From: Porpolomopsis calyptriformis
Taxonomy: Eukaryota > Basidiomycota > Agaricomycetes > Agaricales > Hygrophoraceae
Direction of reading: 5' to 3'
Assembly: GCA_951640195.1 (NCBI GenBank)
Contig: OX621174.1
Coordinates: forward strand, 744,001-808,000
Length of the DNA stretch: 64,000 nucleotides
Shown here: positions 25,534 to 37,116 of the stretch, piece after piece
Layout: every line of letters starts with the position of its first letter
Numbering within the stretch: the stretch's first letter is position 1
Position numbers and translations under genes: made by a program
Notes under the pieces: model-generated
Told to the model about the DNA's origin: nothing
Database searches by the model: none
The model's input: the letters and a program-made list of their open reading frames with translations, nothing else

Positions 25534-28500
25534 ATGAAGCAGTATTATCTATGTCAATGCAAACTCCAGGATAATGAACACATGGTCCCCAAATCTAAAA
25601 GACTTGCTCACAACCTTGTGCTGCAGCTGAAGGCATCCGAGGTGGGTTTCTAATGCTATATATCCCTCCCGGCTAATTCACTCAACCCCTCTTAGAATTC
25701 ATCCCTTGTCGACTCAATGAAAGCCTTAACAGTGACAGACAAGCCTGAGACCAATGTAGTATGTGTTCCTCAGTCCTTTTCACCTTATTTTTTGAATAAC
25801 AATTGCTTCAGGATGCAGATTGCTCAATTTCCGACAGCAAGCTCGCTGATTTAATAACAGCTGTGACCCTCACTGATGATGCCTCTAATGTGACTGAGCA
25901 GCCAAGCAAGCTGTGGGCCTCTTGCACCAAGTTTCAACAGTCCAGGGCTGCCCATTCGGTGATTGGGGGGAGTATTCCCATTGGTGAGCTAGAACACAGT
26001 GTCCAGGCACTTCTCCTCAATCCACCTCCCTTTATCAGTACTCCTCCACATTCCCAACCCACTCACCACAATCCACTTCCCTTTATTAGGACTCCTGCGC
26101 ATTCTTCACCAGCTCGCTTTTCTGCTTCGACTATACCCCCCGCCACTCCCAAACAAAACCCCTCTGCTCTTATGAGCAAACCTGTTGGGGTGGTTGTCAG
26201 GAAAGCTCTTAATATCATTGCAAAGATTGAGTAGGAGATGCTTGCCATTGGCCCCACGCTCATTGTACCACATGACATTGATTATAGAGATGTCACCCAA
26301 GTTTTTCAAATGTGGGCATGACTGGAGGCAGCTGCAGCCCATGTTGATGCTGCTGAGCAATCCTTAAAATGCATCTGATGCTTGGAACAGGAGGTCCTTG
26401 CTTGTATAGACACTGTGGTCACCTTGTTGAAAGAGATGGATGCTCATCTCAGTTTCTTAGGAGCTGCTTTGCCTTCGCTGCCTGAGACTAAACCCGTCTT
26501 TTTTGATGCGAGTACATTTTGTCCATCACCGCTGCTTGGCATTTTTAAAAATATTACTGTGTCCTTAGCTCATATCTATGAAAACCCCATAGAGAGGTTA
26601 GACTTAATCACTCAACTAGCAATATTGTTAGGAATTGTGTGCAACATGATAATGGGCATTAGCACCAAGCTGTGTAACTTTATCATCAGCGTGGTGATGC
26701 TCATAGTGAAAATAGCTATGGCTACAGTATCTACGAAGGGAAATGAAGAATATGAATGTTACATTTTCAACTAGCTACCAACAAGTTTGTACACTGCCCT
26801 GAATCGGTTCAACATCGATGGACAGACCAAAATCTATGCTGTGTGTCCCAAGTGTAACTACACATACAAACCTTCTTGTGCTAGTTTCAAGGCTAGCTAC
26901 CCTACTCGATGCACCAATTGTATACTGGGACCCTCTGGATCTAGTATGTGTCATACAGAGTTGCTTGAAAATTGTCATGGCTGTCTCTGGCCATTGAAGC
27001 CATTCCTTGCGGCATCTTTTACAGACTATCTTGCCTGATTGCTGAGTAATGCTGACATTGAGTGCCTTTGCGACAAAGCCTGCGATAATGCTGTGAATGC
27101 TCTCAAGGAGCCTCCTAATCCAGATGTGATGAATATCTTCCATGCTGAGTTCATGAAAACCTTTGAAGGTCCCACCCCAGGAAAATTGTTCGTTAACAGA
27201 GGGGATAGGGTTCGCTTGGCATTTGCTATACAAACTGACTTTTTCAATCCGAATGGCACCAGAATGCATAGGAATCACGATTCAATCGGTATCATCTCCC
27301 TGGTCAATCTCAATCTTCCCGTTTCAATTCGCTACAAGCCAGAACACTTATTTTTAGTGGGTATCGTACCAGGCCCCAAGGAACCTGAGAAGGAAGAGAT
27401 TTCATATTTCTTGCAACCAGTCATTGATGAATGTGTCGTTGCATGGAAACTGGGAATTCATGTCTCCAAAACTGCGTCTTGTCCTGAACAAGGTTGTGAT
27501 GTTGAAGTAGTGATCGTTCTCTCTGTCAATGATCTGCCTGCAGCCTGCAAGGTATCGGGGAATGCAGGTTGTTGGTCTGACCTTTACTGCACTGCCTGTT
27601 GTTGTTACAGCTGGGAGACCATGTATCATAGCAACTTCTGCAATTGGGAACCAAGAAATGGATCAGAAATGTGTCGGCAGGCTGAAGTGTGGCAGCATGC
27701 TCAGACTTCCAAAGAGAGAGATGTCATCTTTACCCAGTATGGCGTGCGATGGTCTGAGTTCTGGAGACTACCCTACTGGGACCCCTCGTGGATGCTTGTA
27801 ATTGACAGCATGCATTGCATTCTTGAGGGTCTGGTCCATTATTACTGTCGCTATGTCCTCCAACTTGATGCCAAGCAAGCAATGACCAAGGACTCCATAG
27901 TTCCTGCGTTCCTCTATCCCTGGACACAGTATAGTCTGAATGTACCTCCAGAATATCGTATCAAGCACAAGAGGGAGATAAAGCAGATTTTAGAGATTCA
28001 CTCGATATTAGTTCTGCCCTTTAATAGTGGTGCAGGATCGATCACCTTGGATGAGCTGATGGTTAAACTCCTCAACAAAAATTTACCTGCTCTCAAATTC
28101 ATTTGCTACTCTCTTGATCTGTGGATGAAGGTTGTATGCCAGCAGGGAAAGATAGTCCCTGCACAAACAAAAAGACATTTTGCAAGTCTGCTGATAGACT
28201 GGGTGAGTCGAAACGCCATCTTCATTCATAACAACTCTAACATATATTCTGCAGCATCATACCATGCCTCTGACCTCTGTTACCTTCCTGCCTAGAGTCA
28301 CCACCCCTGAAACCATCAAGTACATCCAACAAGTAATCAAGGAGACCTTAACGCCCTCCTGGATCAATTCTGTGCCCACCAATTATGGTGAGAACTCTGT
28401 GGGCACCATCAAGGCTGATGAATGGTGCACTTTGAGTACGGTGTACCTTCCGATAGCCCTTGTCACCTTGTGGGCAGGAAAGGGTGACAAGCAGCCAGAA

Positions 28501-29396: not shown

Positions 29397-30044
29397 GTAG
29401 ATTTATGAACATGTATTTATGTAGCTCTAATTGTAATCTTTTGTTTATTTGAGAATGTAAGAACAGTAGCGTATGATGATTGTACGCCTCTTGCATGCTT
29501 GTTGGATGCCTCTCGCACGCTTGTCGGATACCTGTCATACACTTGTCAGAGGCCTGTCGTATGCTCACCATGTGATTAGTTTTGGGTGTACCGAAACTAT
29601 TAGTTTCGGGATCCGTTTTGGGAGTTCCGAGGCTGAGGACGGAACTTTTGCTTTTGGCATGTCTGAAATCAGTACAGAAACTTGAAGTTCGGCAATAAAT
29701 TCCTGGCAGCCTGAAATTTTTGATTTCAGGAGTTGGAAAATTAGTCCCAAAACTTGAGTTATTATTTTGAGTTTCAAGATACCTGAAATGTTGAATGTCA
29801 GGCAAAAATTCAGTGCACCCTAAAACAGCACATATTCATATAGTTTCTGTGTAAATTTCAGAAATCCTCATTTTTTAAATTTCAATTCTGTTTTTGGTGG
29901 TCCTGAAATTTACAGCAAGATCTTAAGTTTCAGTTTAGTTTTCAGTACAACTGAAATTTTTTAATTTCCAGTGTGAGTGCACCCTGGGCAGCACTTACGA
30001 AAGCCTATTAGGCCCATTTTTAGGTGATGGGAAATCTGCCTAAC
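29397..30044. other. Probable subterminal region of the second transposon
   Basis: A four-unit degenerate 22-base tandem repeat (GCCTCTCGCACGCTTGTCGGAT type) lies at about 29487-29574. Then come many CTGAAATT/AATTTCAG words at 29640-29970, and two copies of GTGCACCCT followed by CAGCAC (29812-29831 and 29976-29995). Such clustered inverted words are typical of DNA transposon ends, but I could not find the partner terminus on the left. Confidence 0.4.
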
Positions 30045-30414
30045 TGTCACGGACATCTTTTTTCCTTTTTCTCTTAGTCATACTTGATTAGTCTCTGTTC
30101 CGTCTATCCTTCCGTTTTACCATTCTATACATAGAGACTGATCACATGTACCTTCCTTCCGACTCTTCACGAGTCACATTCCGTTTCCGATATTCCTTTT
30201 GTGACTCTTCACTAGTCACATTCCGGATTCCGCTTTGTAATCGTACATACGACTGACTCATGGCGATTCAGGTAGTTAGTATATAAAGCCTGATTTCTAG
30301 TCAGTAGGTTAAGTTCGATTCCTAGTTAGCTCCCCCACTCTTTAGTCGAATTCCATTTCCTCATCAGCCCCTCCAACGCGAGAAGTAAAACCCTTCGACT
30401 ACCGAATCATAACA
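30045..30414 (+). repeat. 5' LTR of the intact gypsy element
   Basis: TATATAAA at 30280-30287, with the predicted transcription start near 30311. I found no difference from the 3' LTR by eye. Confidence 0.93.
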
Positions 30415-30415
30415 A

Positions 30416-30426
30416 GAATCGAACTT
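30416..30426 (+). promoter_or_regulatory. Self-complementary primer-binding site
   Basis: GAATCGAACTT, one base after the LTR, is the exact reverse complement of AAGTTCGATTC at 30311-30321. That stretch begins about 24 bases after the TATA box. The 11-base length equals that known for Tf1 self-priming. Confidence 0.8.
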
Positions 30427-30589
30427 CCTTCTTGCGCATCAAACCACTTCCACTCTGGATCCTGCCGAAGACTTAACAAGGTCAATCTTCTCATCTGCAG
30501 ATTCAGATACTCCCTTTCAACCAATAGTATTCCAAACCCCCGCACAATCCATCATCCCCCTTTCCCCCTCATCATCATCACTGACATCA

Positions 30590-32014
30590 ATGTCTCAACA
30601 AGAGTATGAAGCCGATCAATCCGTTCCCGCACCAGGACCCAGTAACATCCCCCCTACCATTCAAGAAGAAGAAGAAGACGTCGTCCCATTTAACATGGAA
30701 CAAGAGCTCAGAGATTTAAGAGCACAAATCGACCAGTTCCGCGGTTGGTACTACAGCGAAGTCGACGTCAATGAAGAGCTCCGAAAGGAGCTGAAAGCTC
30801 TCAAAGAAAGTCGACGCGAAGAATCTGAACCAGCCACCCCTCCCCCACGACGACGATCTGTGCTTCGGGGACCTGGACTTTCCCCCTCGAATCCTTTCGT
30901 TTATCCCACAAGAAGAACCCAATCCGTCCAACCTCCATCCCAACCAACCTTTCCCACTCAACTACCCACCCAGACGACTGCTCCCCCCACACTTCCAGCC
31001 CCCACCAAAATCAAAATCGCCGATCCGACCGAGTATGATGGAACCTCCGAAAAGCTTGAAGACTTCATTCATCAATGTCGACTCAACTTTGTGGTCAAAG
31101 ACTACAACGATAAACAGAAGATCATCTATATGCTCTCCTACCTCGGTGACGGCAATCCACGGGCCTGGGGACGACTGTTCACAGAAGGAGTTGACAGGAC
31201 GAGGAATTTCGTATGGGACTATGCAACATTTTTGGACGATTTCAGGGAAGCTTTCGGAAGGATCAACCCAGCGGCGAAGGCGCGGATCGAGCTAGAGAAA
31301 GTGAAGATGACAGGAACGATAGAAGACTACAACCTTCGGTTCATGCAACACGCAGCAAGAACTGAGTACAACGAGACTGCTCTACTTCGGTTTTACAAAG
31401 CCGGACTCCCCCAGCCGATCCGAACGCGGATCTACTCGATGGACAATATGCCGTCGACTTTGCTGGACTGGACGACGAAAGCGGCCCAGTTCGAAGAACA
31501 GTACCAGGAACAACGAGCCGAACAAGCATTGTGGTCAAGTCGAGATCAAAAAGGAAAGAAGTCTGAAACCAAATCGAGTCCACGAGGAAACCCTTCCCGC
31601 TCCATCACCACCACCACCACTTCATCCCCGATTAAACAAGAATCGAGAGAAGCCTCTCTCAAGACAGCGAAACGAGACAACTCCTCCATCACTTGCTACA
31701 ATTGTGGCAAAAAGGGACACTATGCCAACGAATGTCGAAGTCCACGTGCTGAAGACGTTCCGGCACGTCAAGAATCCTCAAACTCTACTCGAGGAAAAGG
31801 AGGAAATCGCGGTCGAGGCAAAGGACGGAATGTCCGAACGATCAATCGGGTCGATACAGAAGAATTGGAAGCGCGGATAGAGGAGGTATCAGAGGACGAC
31901 GAAAAGGAAAAAAGGATGGCAAAGGACGACTTGAAGGATATGGGAATCGCAAATTGGAACAAGGAGAGACGGGCTGCGCTAGCTCGAGCGTTAAAAGAGC
32001 AAAAGGATTTTTAG
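30590..32014 (+). CDS. gag: Gag polyprotein
   Basis: 474 residues from an ATG in context ATCAATG. Acidic N terminus with a coiled-coil stretch (about residues 35-80), Pro-rich segment (85-140), capsid region with EYDGTSEKLEDFIHQCRLNF and a PRAWGRLF block, and basic Ser/Thr-rich linker. A CCHC knuckle CYNCGKKGHYANEC lies near residue 374, and an RGK-rich region follows. Gag packages the element RNA into virus-like particles. The frame overlaps pol by 61 bases, with pol in the -1 frame. No classical slippery heptamer is obvious in the overlap. Confidence 0.92.
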   Translation: MSQQEYEADQSVPAPGPSNIPPTIQEEEEDVVPFNMEQELRDLRAQIDQFRGWYYSEVDVNEELRKELKALKESRREESEPATPPPRRRSVLRGPGLSPSNPFVYPTRRTQSVQPPSQPTFPTQLPTQTTAPPTLPAPTKIKIADPTEYDGTSEKLEDFIHQCRLNFVVKDYNDKQKIIYMLSYLGDGNPRAWGRLFTEGVDRTRNFVWDYATFLDDFREAFGRINPAAKARIELEKVKMTGTIEDYNLRFMQHAARTEYNETALLRFYKAGLPQPIRTRIYSMDNMPSTLLDWTTKAAQFEEQYQEQRAEQALWSSRDQKGKKSETKSSPRGNPSRSITTTTTSSPIKQESREASLKTAKRDNSSITCYNCGKKGHYANECRSPRAEDVPARQESSNSTRGKGGNRGRGKGRNVRTINRVDTEELEARIEEVSEDDEKEKRMAKDDLKDMGIANWNKERRAALARALKEQKDF

Positions 32015-35000
32015 TCCGGCCAAGTGCTAAAAGCCCGAGCACTTTGGCTGTGTCCCATGTATGTGTACCACCATCTATGAAAAGTTTTTGTTTTCTTGGC
32101 ACACTTGAACAGGGCAAAGGCGCTCTCGAATTCTATCTTTGGATCACGAGTGCCGACAATCTTCGACGAGTGGCTATCATAGCACTCATTGACTCTGGCG
32201 CCTCAGGGAATTTTATTGACGAAGCATTCGTTCGTCAAATGGAGATATCGACCTATCTGTTGGATGAGGTTATACCGGTACGAAACGCTGATGGTTCCGA
32301 GAACCGAGGAGGTCCCATCACGCACGATACAGACCTGTTTATTGAGGCACCAGATCTATCCTTTCGAGAACGAATCCGGTTGGAGGTCACCAACTTAGGA
32401 AAAAAGCAACAGGTCATCCTCGGCTTCCCATGGCTCTTGCGACACAACCCCACCATCAATTGGACAAAAGGCACCTTAACCTTTGCGTCTGGTGACACGC
32501 TGTTCAGTAGTATGCGAGTCGGAGTGTTGCCCCCACAGGAAGAACTCTACGTCTTCGATTCGAGTCTGAAACATGACTCCTTTATCCGTTTGGTCGGAGT
32601 TGACCACTCCCGACCAGTTTCCATCGAGGAGGATATCAAATCCTTTATTCCCAGTCGTTATCACAATTTCTGGCGTGTTTTTCATACCGCAGAATTCGAC
32701 AAGCTTCCTCCTCGACGTCCTTTTGATCATGCGATCAACCTCTACCCGAACACCAAGTTTCAAGTCGGAAAACTCTATCCCCTTTCCCCCTATGAACAGG
32801 TAGAACTTAATAAGTTTATCGACGAAAATCTCAGAACAGGTCGGATACGTCCATCGAAATCACCGCAAGCTGCTCCCTTCTTCTTTGCGAAAAAGGCTGA
32901 AGAGATCAATGCTAAAGGTCTCAGTGCTGGTCTACGTCCCATCCAGGACTATCGCTACATCAACTCAAAAACCATTCCTGATCGTTACCCCCTTCCCCTT
33001 CTATCGGAAATCCTCCAAGTACCGAAGCTTGCTACTGCTTCACTCTTTACAGTCATCGATATTCGATGGGGATTTAACAACATACGACTCAAGGAAGGTG
33101 ACGAATGGAAAGCAGCTTTCATCACCAATCGAGGACTCTTCAAGCCGACCGTTATGTTCTTTGGACTACGGAACTCCCCAGCATCTTTCCAACGAATGAT
33201 AGACGTTCTCTTTAAAACCGTTCTGGACTCTGGCTGTGTCCACATTTATATTGACGACATTCTCATCATGGGCGACACCCCCGAAGAAATCCGCCACTGG
33301 ACTGACGAAACCCTTAAGCTCATGGAGAAGAATCAACTATCCGCCAAACCCGTCAAATGCCAAATGGAGAAGACCTCTGTTACATACCTTGGTACTATCA
33401 TCAGTAAAGGTCAACTCGCTATCAATCCAAAAAAGGTAGACGCCATCATCAATTGGCCGACGCCCCAAAAGCTGCGAGACCTCCAGTCCTTCCTTGGCAC
33501 CACCAACTTCTGGCGTCGTTACATCAAAAGTTTCTCCTCAGTCGTTCGTCCCCTCTGTGGCCTTTTGCAGAAAGACCAACCTTGGGATTGGTCTCCCTTG
33601 TGTCAAAAAGCCTTTGAGCAACTCAAACATCTCGTCACTACAGCCCCTGTCCTTCTTACCCCGCGGCCAAACCTTCCTTACCTCTTGGAGACTGATGCCT
33701 CAGATTTCGGTATTGGCGCGGTCTTGTCTCAGAAACACGACAACGGTTGGCACCCCGTTGGCTTTTTCTCGAAGTCTCTGCTCCCTGCCGAGTACAACTA
33801 TCCTACCCATGATCTGGAGATGCTTGCAATCATCACTTCCCTCAAATATTGGCGTTATCTTTTAGAGGGCGCAAGGGATACTGTGTTGATAAAGACGGAC
33901 AATTTAGCGCTCAAGTATTTTATGCAGAACAGATCCCTCTCCAGACGACAAGCACGTTGGATGGAATTCTTAGGAAGATTCGACTTCAAAATCGAGTATT
34001 CCCCTGGAGTCAAAAACAAAGCCGATGGACTCTCCCGCCAACCCGACCACCGTCGTACAGAAAAAGAAGAATTAGAAGGCCAAGCCCTCCTCCCCCCCGA
34101 ACGTTTCATCAATGCTGTCATTTCCATGTCCGAACCTTCCTTTATGTCAAGACTTCGCTTCCCCGACTTCAACGAAATCCCAGAGGACACTCGCATCAAG
34201 TTATCCGATCCCTCTTCCGGCTACTCCTTCATTGACGGAATTGTGAGAGATGCAGGAGATCGTATTGTTGTGCCAGCAGACGTATTGCTACGCACAGAGA
34301 TAATTCGATTGACCCACTCCCTGCCCCATGGAGGCCATCCCGGAATCGAGAAGACACGTGAGCTTGTGTTGCGGAACTACACCTGGAGTAGTGCTGCCCC
34401 TGACATCCGTGTATTCGTATCATCCTGTCCGACCTGCCAACAAGTCAAGCTCTATCCTTCGAAGCCTGCAGGTCTCCTGGAACCCATTCCCCCTTCGTCT
34501 CGACCTTGGGAAGAAATCACCGCCGATCTAATCGTGGAACTCCCCCAATCATCTGGCTACGATGCTGTCTTAGTCGTTGTCGACCGCTTTACCAAGCGCG
34601 CTCACTTTATTCCGACGACATCAAATATTTCTGCAGAAGGAGTCGCAAAACTCTTCAGGGACAATGTATGGAAACACCACGGCTGGCCAAAGAAGATCAT
34701 AACCGATCGAGGAACTCAGTTCGCTTCCAAATTTGCGAAAGCTCTCAACACTCATTTGGGAATCATCTCCGGTCTATCCACCGCTTATCATCCCCAAACT
34801 GATGGTCAAACGGAACGCACCAATCAAGAACTCGAACAATACCTTCGTTTGTATACAAACTTTATGCAAGACGATTGGTCCAACTGGCTATCCCCAGCTG
34901 AATTCGCTTACAATAACCGACAGCACTCCTCAATGAAACACACTCCCTTTTACCTTGATACTGGCCAACATCCCTTCGTCCCATCTGTCCCTGCGGCCCC

Positions 35001-35574
35001 TACTTCCAACCCAGCAGCAGATACCTTCCACGATCATCTCACAGAAGCCCGTGAAGAAGCCACAAAAGCTCTAGAAACAGCGGCCGAAACCATGAAACGC
35101 TTCGCAGATCGTAAACGGAAAGATACCCAACTCCAAATAGGTCAATTTGTTTATCTTGATACTCGTAACTTAAAAACAGGTCGTCCAACCCTCAAACTTG
35201 ATGTCCGACGCACTGGACCGTTCAAAGTTCTAGAAAAGATCGGAAAAGTCTCTTATCGCCTGGCCCTCCCCTTATCATGGAAAATACACGACGTCTTTCA
35301 CGTTTCACTCCTGAGACCCACTAATATTAACTCCGATCTCCACCCAGAGGAAGTAGATGATAATCTCCGTCCACCTCCGGATGTCATTCAAGAGAAAGAA
35401 GAATATGAGGTCGAACAAATTCTCCAACATCACGGGTCCACCCGACGTCGTACGTATTTGGTCAAATGGGTCGGCTATCCCATTGAAGAAGCAACCTGGG
35501 AACCGAAGAAGAACCTCTTCCATGCGAAAGAACGAATTCTAGAATACGAACAATCAATTCAAACGGCGACCTGA
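31954..35574 (+). CDS. pol: Pol polyprotein with C-terminal chromodomain
   Basis: The frame is open for 1206 codons from 31954; the true N terminus depends on how translation passes from gag. Protease IALIDSGASGNFID near residue 78; reverse transcriptase with YIDDILIM near 432; RNase H with ETDASDFGIGAVL near 577. The integrase zinc finger has HSLPHGGH and CPTCQQ near 790-830. The DDE core shows TADLIVELP, ITDRGTQF and a Glu in QTDGQTERTNQELEQYL. The chromodomain (YEVEQILQHH...YLVKWVGYPIEEATWEP) is near 1145-1185. All catalytic residues I can check are present. The chromodomain is expected to bind methylated histone H3 Lys9 and steer integration. Confidence 0.95.
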   Translation: MEQGETGCASSSVKRAKGFLVRPSAKSPSTLAVSHVCVPPSMKSFCFLGTLEQGKGALEFYLWITSADNLRRVAIIALIDSGASGNFIDEAFVRQMEISTYLLDEVIPVRNADGSENRGGPITHDTDLFIEAPDLSFRERIRLEVTNLGKKQQVILGFPWLLRHNPTINWTKGTLTFASGDTLFSSMRVGVLPPQEELYVFDSSLKHDSFIRLVGVDHSRPVSIEEDIKSFIPSRYHNFWRVFHTAEFDKLPPRRPFDHAINLYPNTKFQVGKLYPLSPYEQVELNKFIDENLRTGRIRPSKSPQAAPFFFAKKAEEINAKGLSAGLRPIQDYRYINSKTIPDRYPLPLLSEILQVPKLATASLFTVIDIRWGFNNIRLKEGDEWKAAFITNRGLFKPTVMFFGLRNSPASFQRMIDVLFKTVLDSGCVHIYIDDILIMGDTPEEIRHWTDETLKLMEKNQLSAKPVKCQMEKTSVTYLGTIISKGQLAINPKKVDAIINWPTPQKLRDLQSFLGTTNFWRRYIKSFSSVVRPLCGLLQKDQPWDWSPLCQKAFEQLKHLVTTAPVLLTPRPNLPYLLETDASDFGIGAVLSQKHDNGWHPVGFFSKSLLPAEYNYPTHDLEMLAIITSLKYWRYLLEGARDTVLIKTDNLALKYFMQNRSLSRRQARWMEFLGRFDFKIEYSPGVKNKADGLSRQPDHRRTEKEELEGQALLPPERFINAVISMSEPSFMSRLRFPDFNEIPEDTRIKLSDPSSGYSFIDGIVRDAGDRIVVPADVLLRTEIIRLTHSLPHGGHPGIEKTRELVLRNYTWSSAAPDIRVFVSSCPTCQQVKLYPSKPAGLLEPIPPSSRPWEEITADLIVELPQSSGYDAVLVVVDRFTKRAHFIPTTSNISAEGVAKLFRDNVWKHHGWPKKIITDRGTQFASKFAKALNTHLGIISGLSTAYHPQTDGQTERTNQELEQYLRLYTNFMQDDWSNWLSPAEFAYNNRQHSSMKHTPFYLDTGQHPFVPSVPAAPTSNPAADTFHDHLTEAREEATKALETAAETMKRFADRKRKDTQLQIGQFVYLDTRNLKTGRPTLKLDVRRTGPFKVLEKIGKVSYRLALPLSWKIHDVFHVSLLRPTNINSDLHPEEVDDNLRPPPDVIQEKEEYEVEQILQHHGSTRRRTYLVKWVGYPIEEATWEPKKNLFHAKERILEYEQSIQTAT

Positions 35575-35698
35575 TCACTCTTTCACGGTATCAACTCCCC
35601 TCGTTTATATTTTCACTTTTGTCACCTCTTCCAAACTCCGACTCTTCCTTATAATCTCTTTCGTCTCCATCTTTCATTCTCAAGAAATCGATCTCGCT

Positions 35699-36277
35699 AT
35701 GCCCGCCGAACGCTCGCATCAAACTGCCCGCAAGTCTACTGGTGGTCGTCCACCCCGCGCTCCTCGCATGTCCACTGGAGGGCAACCCCCTCGTCGCGCT
35801 CCCCCTCCGCTCGCTTCCACCTCCTCCGCTTACGGTGAAGCCGAGCTCGCCGGACAACTCTGGCAGCACAACCGTCGCGCACGAAATCGAGACCTTCCCA
35901 TATGGCCAGAGGAAATCGTCGCTCCACCCATCCCGCCCGAGCAGATCATCGAGTCACTACAGAAAGATATCGATTACTACAAGAACGAGATTGCAAGACT
36001 AAACGAAGAATTGTACAACCAAGGAATGAGCTTGGACGGAAACAGAAGAGGGAGTGAGTACTGGCGAGAGCAGGCCAAATACTGGGAGGCAAAGTACGAG
36101 GAAGTCGCGAAGGTACTTCCCCATCTTGATTCTCCAGTTCCCCCTGTTTTCCCGGGTCCACTCATCGTTCCCCCCGGTTCGTCGTCGAACCCCATCACCA
36201 TCCCCGATGACGACGATATTTCCCCGGTCGACATTATTTCCCTGTCGACCATCGCCTCCAACAAGGACTCAATCTAG
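35699..36277 (+). CDS. ORF3 with histone H3 tail-like N terminus
   Basis: 192 residues, 125 bases after pol and before the 3' LTR. Residues 8-16 read QTARKSTGG, identical to H3 residues 5-13, followed by RPPR against H3 KAPR. A degraded second copy (PRMSTGGQPPRR) follows at once. Then come a Pro-rich stretch, a helical region likely to form a coiled coil (about 85-145: EQIIESLQKDIDYYKNEIAR), and an acidic tail with ITIPDDDDIS. There is no histone fold, signal peptide or membrane segment, so it is neither a histone nor an envelope protein. The element also encodes a chromodomain, so the mimic may be a ligand for it or for host H3K9 readers or writers; that is inference. Confidence 0.85.
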   Translation: MPAERSHQTARKSTGGRPPRAPRMSTGGQPPRRAPPPLASTSSAYGEAELAGQLWQHNRRARNRDLPIWPEEIVAPPIPPEQIIESLQKDIDYYKNEIARLNEELYNQGMSLDGNRRGSEYWREQAKYWEAKYEEVAKVLPHLDSPVPPVFPGPLIVPPGSSSNPITIPDDDDISPVDIISLSTIASNKDSI

Positions 36278-36357
36278 TCCTTCCCCTCCTCCACACCCTT
36301 CAACACTCTCGAAGCCGCCTCGAATTTCGGGACGAAATTCCTTTTAGTGTGGGTGTA

Positions 36358-36727
36358 TGTCACGGACATCTTTTTTCCTTTTTCTCTTAGTCATACTTGA
36401 TTAGTCTCTGTTCCGTCTATCCTTCCGTTTTACCATTCTATACATAGAGACTGATCACATGTACCTTCCTTCCGACTCTTCACGAGTCACATTCCGTTTC
36501 CGATATTCCTTTTGTGACTCTTCACTAGTCACATTCCGGATTCCGCTTTGTAATCGTACATACGACTGACTCATGGCGATTCAGGTAGTTAGTATATAAA
36601 GCCTGATTTCTAGTCAGTAGGTTAAGTTCGATTCCTAGTTAGCTCCCCCACTCTTTAGTCGAATTCCATTTCCTCATCAGCCCCTCCAACGCGAGAAGTA
36701 AAACCCTTCGACTACCGAATCATAACA
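36358..36727 (+). repeat. 3' LTR of the intact gypsy element
   Basis: Matches the 5' LTR throughout by eye. Followed by the CTAAC duplication at 36728-36732. A conserved-looking stretch, GGGACGAAATTCC, lies about 35 bases upstream. Confidence 0.93.
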
Positions 36728-37116
36728 CTAACAGGTCACCTCTGAGTAGAGGTCTAAACCTGGATTCAGATTCCTTGGACCTCTCGAGGCCATGAGAGAT
36801 TACTGAGATGACCACAAGGGCTCTTCTCCACCTACCGCAAGTGCTCTTTTGGACCTATCCTGGGCTCTTGTCCCACCCACAGAGGTCACATTTTACTTTT
36901 TAAGGAGGCTCGTAAAATAAAAATAGCACAACAAAAAAACATATATATATTGCTGCAACAAAAAAGCCAGGGGCAACAAGAATACAGAAAACACAAAAAA
37001 AGACACAACTGAGATACTTCAAGAATGCCCAACCAGGCCCCCTCAGGTTGTTTGGGTAAAGGCTGAAGGAGCATGCGGGGCGAGATGCCTGCAGCTCAGT
37101 GAGCCATGCGTGGAGG
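36728..37116. other. No gene recognised
   Basis: About 390 bases containing the displaced continuation of the sequence left of the gypsy insertion, then an A-rich stretch (36895-37010) and the 3' flank of the next minus-strand ORF. Confidence 0.4.

What the first reader, a model, noticed from the sequence alone, without database searches (positions are those of the whole stretch)
35699..36277. Retrotransposon ORF3 begins with a histone H3 tail mimic around Lys9
Residues 8-16 (QTARKSTGG) equal H3 residues 5-13 exactly, with RPPR following where H3 has KAPR, and a second degraded copy (RMSTGGQPPRR) directly after. The same element encodes a pol-terminal chromodomain, a module known to read methylated H3K9. 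An element-encoded H3K9-like peptide with a coiled coil could bind the integrase chromodomain, recruit the host methyltransferase or HP1, or block silencing. I know of no described gypsy ORF3 of this kind.
Basis: partly seen in the sequence, partly recalled or inferred. Interest (0 to 1): 0.87.

Follow-up and report, generated by a model that had tools for sequence, protein, structure and literature searches.

The report
Retrotransposon protein copying histone H3 tail
A high-copy fungal jumping gene carries a small extra protein whose front end copies the part of histone H3 that cells mark to silence jumping genes, and natural selection has kept that copy almost unchanged, which suggests that the element uses it to engage the silencing machinery or its own matching reader domain.

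Summary
A complete Ty3/gypsy element (30045-36727; 370-bp LTRs identical; TSD CTAAC) carries ORF3 at 35699-36277, between pol and the 3' LTR. Its residues 8-16 equal H3 5-13 (QTARKSTGG). The host genome holds about 100 ORF3 matches.

In 73 fetched copies the motif is the most conserved 9-residue window of the protein. In 65 of them, with CpG-type changes set aside, it shows 1 amino-acid change against 34.6 expected at the silent rate, and 24 silent changes. The degraded second repeat is less constrained. The ARKSTGG pattern hits this genome 70 times: 3 in histone H3 genes, 67 in ORF3.

The integrase chromodomain keeps the full methyl-lysine cage in 70 of 71 copies. A second gypsy family has a homologous ORF3 without the H3 tail; in the one pol frame read, no chromodomain was detected.

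Five database proteins, one from the polypore Daedalea quercina, carry 2-4 such modules each, with K14 replaced in each module tabulated.

Best reading: an element-encoded H3K9 mimic on a coiled coil, methylated by the host and bound by chromodomains, its own integrase's and/or HP1. Methylation and binding are inferred. No such ORF3 appeared in the paper searches made.

The parts
30040..30044 (.). 5' target-site duplication CTAAC
30045..30414 (+). 5' LTR, 370 bp, TG...CA
   Evidence: 370/370 identical to the 3' LTR
30413..32014 (+). gag open frame (stop to stop, 533 aa; it overlaps the last bases of the LTR): Ty3_capsid and CCHC zinc knuckle
31753..35574 (+). pol open frame (stop to stop): aspartic protease, RT, RNase H, integrase, chromodomain
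35404..35553 (+). integrase C-terminal chromodomain with cage residues Y, W, Y
   Evidence: Pfam Chromo 47.5 bits; PDB matches Oxpecker, HP1, CBX1, CDYL, MPP8, SUV39H1; cage YWY in 70 of 71 copies
35699..36277 (+). ORF3, 192 aa plus stop, the H3K9-mimic protein
35720..35746 (+). QTARKSTGG, identical to histone H3 residues 5-13 (mimic Lys = ORF3 K12)
35765..35797 (+). second, degraded repeat RMSTGGQPPRR (Lys replaced by Met)
35936..36115 (+). ORF3 residues 80-139: long predicted helix with a heptad-like pattern, probable coiled coil, in the part shared with the family-2 ORF3
   Evidence: AlphaFold2 block pLDDT 95-98 over residues 81-130; residues at heptad positions; homology
36358..36727 (+). 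3' LTR
36728..36732 (.). 3' target-site duplication CTAAC

Best explanation
ORF3 is an element-encoded mimic of the histone H3 tail around Lys9. SHOWN: a low-confidence (probably disordered) N-terminal tail carries H3 residues 5-13 and sits in front of a predicted long helix with a heptad-like pattern; protein-level purifying selection holds the motif harder than the rest of ORF3; the element's integrase carries a chromodomain with an intact methyl-lysine cage. INFERRED: the host H3K9 methyltransferase (one Pre-SET match was found in the genome) methylates ORF3 Lys12, and the methylated tail, presented in two or more copies by the coiled coil, docks into chromodomains. Host HP1 is the second reader, with dampening of silencing as the effect.
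For: Exact 9-residue match in frame at the N-terminus. Among 73 fetched copies QTARKSTGG ranks 1 of 184 nine-residue windows for identity, 98.5% against a mean of 89.3%, with K12 in 73 of 73; the losses at R11 (8 copies) are CGC to CAC or TGC, CpG-type. On a tree of 65 copies, non-CpG amino-acid changes in the motif number 1 (expected 34.6 at the silent rate) against 24 silent (expected 18.6), p=0.0002 versus the rest of ORF3 (p=0.004 on internal branches alone, 0 against 16); whole-ORF3 N/E is 0.27 on internal branches against 0.12 for the integrase part. The motif has 13 DNA spellings in ORF3. Chromodomain cage YWY in 70 of 71; the nearest solved domains include H3K9me readers. Tail-less ORF3 homologue in a gypsy family with no chromodomain detected in the one pol frame read. 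Low-confidence tail plus long helix. Pre-SET match present. Published: the MAGGY chromodomain binds H3K9me2/3 and directs integration (PMC3350952, passages); trimethylated H3K9-like peptides of ATF7IP and GLP bind the MPP8 chromodomain at 193 and 337 nM, with no detectable binding without methylation (PMC7618375, passages).
Against: No methylation, binding or expression data. Only two ORF3-bearing families could be compared, and only one family-2 pol frame was read in full, so the tail-chromodomain pairing rests on n=2. Far more chromodomain candidates (718 in the first look, 150 scored) than ORF3 copies exist in this genome, so chromodomain elements need not have this tail. Unmethylated tails probably bind poorly, so the model needs a host enzyme to reach ORF3. 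HP1 was not found with the chromo-shadow model, but its control was silent too (inconclusive). Other parts of ORF3 are also well kept (residues 1-7: 0 of 10.0 expected on internal branches; residues 34-80: N/E 0.14), and CpG-type changes did hit the motif (7 amino-acid changes). Similarity to H3 chains in the PDB is weak by E-value (best 0.078).
Confidence: 0.5

Rival explanations
1. Anti-silencing decoy: the H3-like tail is a pseudo-substrate or pseudo-ligand that titrates the host H3K9 methyltransferase and/or HP1 away from element chromatin. The integrase chromodomain is irrelevant to it.
For: The conserved core covers the K9 region but not the H3 N-terminus (position 4 is H in ORF3 and S in the L071 variant). 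Five other proteins carry 2-4 modules each, as a multivalent decoy would, with no Pfam match at E<=0.1. Position 14 is not K in any of the 19 modules tabulated, which would uncouple the mimic from K14 acetylation or ubiquitylation (recalled roles). Element copies show CpG decay and the genome has DNA-methyltransferase-like matches.
Against: Family 2 is a transposon in the same host and would profit equally, yet its ORF3 has no tail in the copies read. One weakly expressed ORF would have to titrate abundant host proteins (inference). No expression data.
Confidence: 0.25
2. Nuclear-import or histone-chaperone mimicry: the tail imitates the H3 import signal so that ORF3, and the element particle with it, enters the nucleus through an H3 karyopherin.
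For: H3 has an import signal read by Kap123 (PMC5677370, search listing and start of abstract only). An integrating element needs nuclear entry. Basic residues flank the motif.
Against: S, T and G of the motif are kept in 72 or 73 of 73 copies, while the flanking basic residues R17, R20 and R23 are R in 61, 52 and 36 of 73, although many of those changes are CpG-type. Position 14 is not K.
Confidence: 0.08
3. The tail serves an H3-unrelated role (for example binding element RNA or gag, or a phosphorylation or 14-3-3 site), and its likeness to H3 is accidental.
For: The tail is basic and precedes a probable coiled coil. ARKS is also a kinase and 14-3-3 type site (recalled).
Against: ARKSTGG is exact in 67 copies; the same extended signature (RTKQTARKSTGG-R-APRK) occurs in another fungal protein, with up to 16 of 21 positions equal to H3 1-21 in four modules; backward-pattern control 1+1.
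Confidence: 0.12
4. A neutral relic of captured host H3 sequence, without function.
For: The host H3 gene at C5:682829 matches the window's motif at 23 of 25 bases of what by eye is its first exon, which ends within codon 13 (one search printed 25 of 27 and 7 of 9 codons because two intron bases were included).
Against: 1 amino-acid change against 34.6 expected at the silent rate, with 24 silent changes against 18.6 expected.
Confidence: 0.02

Closest known systems
H3K9-like mimic motifs in silencing factors (G9a/GLP, ATF7IP, SETDB1, DNMT3A)
   Same: ARK[S/T]-type peptide in a non-histone protein, methylated by an H3K9 methyltransferase and bound by the chromodomains of HP1 or MPP8 (PMC7618375, passages; PMC10611923, passages)
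   Different: Those are host proteins, and their matches to H3 are short (recalled to be about 4 residues). Here nine residues are exact, the carrier is a retrotransposon, and the element also encodes a putative reader.
Viral histone mimics (influenza NS1, SARS-CoV-2 ORF8)
   Same: A genetic parasite encodes an H3-tail-like motif (recalled; papers touching ORF8 and influenza seen only as search listings)
   Different: Viruses of animals, other H3 sites or shorter matches, no chromodomain integrase (recalled). Here an LTR retrotransposon of a fungus.
Chromoviruses with group I chromodomains (MAGGY, Tcn1)
   Same: Ty3/gypsy with an integrase C-terminal chromodomain having Y24/W45/Y48-type cage residues; the MAGGY chromodomain binds H3K9me2/3 (PMC3350952, passages)
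   Different: No H3-like ORF3 is mentioned in the passages read.
LTR retrotransposons with extra ORFs 3' of pol (bdelloid rotifer elements, plant Retand)
   Same: An accessory ORF between pol and the 3' LTR, coiled coil included in some (PMC5408684, passages; PMC11963269, search listing)
   Different: Those in the passages read are env-like, enzymatic or of unclear function; the word histone does not occur in the main text of PMC5408684.

Membership tests
Ty3/gypsy chromovirus (host element) | RT-RNaseH-integrase order with a C-terminal chromodomain, LTRs, target-site duplication | tested here: met
Group I chromodomain | Three aromatic cage residues | tested here: met
   YWY in 70 of 71 copies; alignment to CBX1 and CDYL chromodomains
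Group I chromodomain | Binding of H3K9me2/3 | not testable with these tools
   needs recombinant protein
Histone H3K9 mimic | ARK[S/T] motif equal to H3 around K9, in a predicted disordered region | tested here: met
   exact 9-mer; residues 1-17 and 19-30 pLDDT <50, taken as disorder
Histone H3K9 mimic | Motif under protein-level selection | tested here: met
Histone H3K9 mimic | Lysine methylated by an H3K9 methyltransferase and bound by a reader | not testable with these tools
   needs mass spectrometry and binding assays
Histone H3 (whole protein) | Histone fold downstream of the tail | tested here: not met
   no histone family among Pfam matches at E<=1, the only match being ODAD1_CC at 0.17, under its cut-off; long helix and no PDB fold match at E<=10
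Env-like ORF3 | Relation to a known envelope family, membrane-spanning segment | tested here: inconclusive
   no envelope family in Pfam; no membrane predictor was run, and I see no long hydrophobic stretch by eye

The most novel reading that the evidence does not exclude
Agaricomycete mobile elements and associated genes have repeatedly adopted H3 5-17 as a portable module (K9 kept, K14 removed, one to four copies per protein), a class of chromatin decoys. In this retrotransposon the decoy is paired with the element's own H3K9me-type reader, so that the parasite carries both halves of the histone-code interaction and can switch its integrase or its silencing by host methylation of its own protein.
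Probability: 0.35. Interest if true: 0.93.

Novelty: new variant of a known kind. Interest (0 to 1): 0.8.

Why it matters
How transposons in H3K9me/DNA-methylation hosts tolerate or exploit silencing is an open question. An element that encodes both an H3K9me-type reader and a selected copy of its histone ligand would be direct evidence of an arms race, or a partnership, at the H3K9 mark. It is testable with one peptide and two recombinant domains. The multi-module relatives suggest that it is not a single curiosity.

Tried and rejected
Homologues of ORF3: none at E<=1 with the single sequence. A profile of 16 sequences found only P0001 at E 0.84, which shares the module but not the rest. IMG/VR: no relative by profile and no DNA pattern match. 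GTDB genomes: no pattern match (prokaryotes only). Solved-structure search by sequence: H3 chains only weakly. Foldseek against the PDB: no match at E<=10. NCBIfam: one hit far under its cut-off to a type III secretion family over the helix, discarded. Chromo_shadow search: empty, and its control was empty, so it says nothing about HP1. Considered and dropped: ORF3 as a Pol read-through product (the frame upstream of the ATG is not conserved, and L020, L024 and L053 have a stop just before it); ORF3 as a histone; splice signals for ORF3 (the script's short 5'-site motifs and [CT]AG acceptors gave no hit in the stretches scanned; not pursued). Searches were translations in a wrong frame and are not used. 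Folding an artificial chromodomain-linker-tail chain was considered and not done.

Full report
WHAT IS THERE. The window holds a complete, apparently recent Ty3/gypsy retrotransposon at 30045-36727. Its two 370-bp LTRs are identical (370/370) and flanked by the 5-bp duplication CTAAC. Gag (Ty3_capsid, CCHC) and pol (protease, RT, RNase H, integrase, chromodomain) are open. Between pol and the 3' LTR lies ORF3, ATG 35699 to stop 36277, 192 aa. Residues 8-16, QTARKSTGG, are identical to H3 5-13; RPPR follows where H3 has KAPR; a degraded second copy follows at residues 23-33.

NOT CHANCE. The genome (G000, 33.5 Mb, 17 contigs) was searched with a degenerate pattern for ARKSTGG: 70 matches, 1+1 for the pattern read backwards. 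Of the 70, 67 lie in ORF3 copies and the other 3 at the N-termini of host H3 genes. With a shorter pattern for QTARK[S], 11 of 87 matches lie, by eye, outside ORF3 and H3, close to that search's backward control (3+5). ORF3 itself has 128 matching stretches, some of them from a second family. I listed 96 first-family matches that reach the N-terminal part, and 67 of these 96 keep ARKSTGG exactly; two more such fragments were left out of that list and hold no pattern hit, so 67 of 98.

SELECTION. I fetched 73 first-family copies (L001-L073: the 70 best-scoring matches plus three of the 78%-identity variant; L002 is the window's own element). This subset is biased to the better preserved copies. 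56 of 73 have no stop. In these 73, QTARKSTGG is the most conserved of 184 nine-residue windows (98.5% against a mean of 89.3%). Q, T, A, K, S and T are unchanged in 73 of 73, each G in 72, and R11 in 65; the R11 changes are CGC to CAC or TGC, the signature of CpG decay in old copies. The motif's DNA is spelled 13 ways in ORF3 copies. On a tree of 65 copies (8 of the 73 dropped because too little pol was held), with CpG-type changes set aside, the motif has 0 amino-acid changes on internal branches (15.1 expected at the silent rate) and 1 on terminal branches (19.5 expected), against 24 silent ones (18.6 expected). CpG-type changes in the motif number 7 amino-acid and 6 silent. Against the rest of ORF3 Fisher p=0.0002 (internal branches alone 0.004); against residues 17-33, which hold the second repeat, p=0.00015. 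Residues 17-33 have N/E 0.39 on internal and 0.27 on terminal branches, so they are constrained about as much as ORF3 at large. Whole ORF3 has N/E 0.27 and 0.40; the integrase part 0.12 and 0.26; the chromodomain part 0.14 and 0.29. Other well-kept ORF3 parts are residues 1-7 (0 of 10.0 expected on internal, 7 of 12.7 on terminal branches) and 34-80 (0.14 and 0.31). A first count on 73 copies gave 2 amino-acid against 30 silent non-CpG changes in the motif, and 297 against 452 in the whole ORF. So ORF3 is a real gene, less constrained than the integrase, and the H3-like motif is its most constrained part at the protein level. These are parsimony counts on trees made from the same data; gene conversion between copies was not modelled.

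ARCHITECTURE. AlphaFold2 on 16 aligned ORF3 sequences (mean pLDDT 64, pTM 0.30) gives low confidence over most of residues 1-43, a helix 45-64 of modest confidence, a long helix 80-139 (block means 95-98 over residues 81-130) and a low-confidence C-terminus. Residues I84, L87, I91, Y94, I98, L101, L105 and L112 fit heptad positions, so a coiled coil is likely and more than one tail per assembly is expected (inferred). Foldseek finds no PDB match at E<=10.

The integrase chromodomain matches solved chromodomains of Oxpecker, HP1, CBX1, CDYL, MPP8 and SUV39H1. The three cage positions are Y, W, Y in 70 of 71 copies with these positions aligned; the exception has a stop. Published work on MAGGY shows that such a chromodomain can bind H3K9me2/3 (PMC3350952, passages).

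A RELATED ORF3 WITHOUT THE TAIL. A second gypsy family in the same genome has an ORF3 at about 33% identity over the coiled coil, with a different N-terminus and no H3-like motif in the copies read. In the one copy whose pol I read in full (L089) the 1425-aa pol frame has RT, RNase H and integrase zinc-binding matches but no chromodomain at E<=0.1. A divergent member of that family (L092) also lacks the tail, while two old, decayed first-family copies (L090, L091) show recognisable remnants of it. The tail and the chromodomain therefore go together in the two families compared; this is only n=2. The genome also holds many other chromodomain matches (718 first-look candidates, 150 scored), far more than there are ORF3 copies.

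OTHER PROTEINS WITH THE MODULE. A profile search of 5.8 billion proteins gave one weak hit at E<=1 (P0001, E 0.84). It carries three QTARKSTGG-like modules. Searching with it found four more at E<=10 (E 1.7e-5, 6.8e-3, 0.54 and 3.1) with two to four modules each, one of them Daedalea quercina DAEQUDRAFT_482210 (an agaricomycete). None of the five has a Pfam match at E<=0.1, and with the modules masked none resembles ORF3 (one 10-residue match to family 2 at E 0.95). I tabulated 19 modules including those of ORF3. Position 14, a lysine in H3, is R in 14, H in 2, Q in 2 and V in 1, never K; P16 is kept in 18. K9 appears in 18 of 19, but the table was built by searching for ARK (or MSTGG), so that number is by construction; and the database searches favoured relatives of ORF3 and P0001. 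The best four modules equal H3 1-21 at 16 positions. Whether these proteins belong to transposons is unknown.

ORIGIN. The host H3 gene at C5:682829 matches the window's motif at 23 of 25 bases of what by eye is its first exon, which ends within codon 13 (one search printed 25 of 27 bases and 7 of 9 codons because two intron bases were included). Capture of H3 sequence followed by a K14 change is plausible; codon preference alone could also give the match, so this is a lead.

HOW IT MOST LIKELY WORKS. The conserved stretch coincides with the H3 segment that K9 methyltransferases and HP1-type chromodomains contact (recalled: about residues 5-12), not with the H3 N-terminus or K4 or K14. I take ORF3 to be a methylatable ligand for chromodomains (0.5), with the element's own integrase as the likeliest selected partner because of the pairing above. 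An anti-silencing decoy for HP1 or the methyltransferase is the main rival (0.25). Methylation, binding, expression and localisation are all untested. The genome has one Pre-SET match and six DNA-methyltransferase matches; the chromo-shadow search was uninformative.

KNOWN OR NEW. H3K9-like mimics are known in host silencing proteins (PMC7618375, PMC10611923, passages) and in some animal viruses (recalled; listings). Extra ORFs 3' of pol are known (PMC5408684, passages). In the listings of ten searches of an open-access library (complete listings only in 23, 26 and 52, capped in the others) I found no retrotransposon-encoded H3-tail mimic; most subscription papers are not in it. I class it as a new variant of a known kind (histone mimicry). 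The species of the window was not identified.

Noticed in passing
L071-L073; G000 C1:520834/522526, C4:419813/418178, C5:732624/730990, C11:520555/522246, C9:1164903/1163269: Five places hold a 78%-identity ORF3 variant about 1.69 kb from a family-2 ORF3 at the same spacing. In L071 the sequence after ORF3 runs into family-2 integrase. An old first-family copy seems to sit inside a family-2 element and to have been copied with it; in L071 its ORF3 is open with an intact tail while the pol stretch just upstream has a stop.
   Followed up: partly
L089:6469-7185: The family-2 gypsy element has a further open frame of 239 aa after its ORF3, with no Pfam match at E<=0.1.
   Followed up: no
window 27039-28292 (+): Fragment of a tnp2-type DNA transposase (PF02992, 55.4 bits).
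   Followed up: no
ORF3 and pol C-terminal stretches of 65 fetched copies: Terminal branches carry many CpG to TpG/CpA changes (268 amino-acid and 197 silent in ORF3, against 161 and 216 others), as expected if element copies are CpG-methylated.
   Followed up: partly
G000 C5:682829, C5:691287, C2:3412919: Three host H3 genes; the reading frame at C2:3412919 departs from the usual H3 start upstream of QTARKSTGG (an upstream intron is possible).
   Followed up: no
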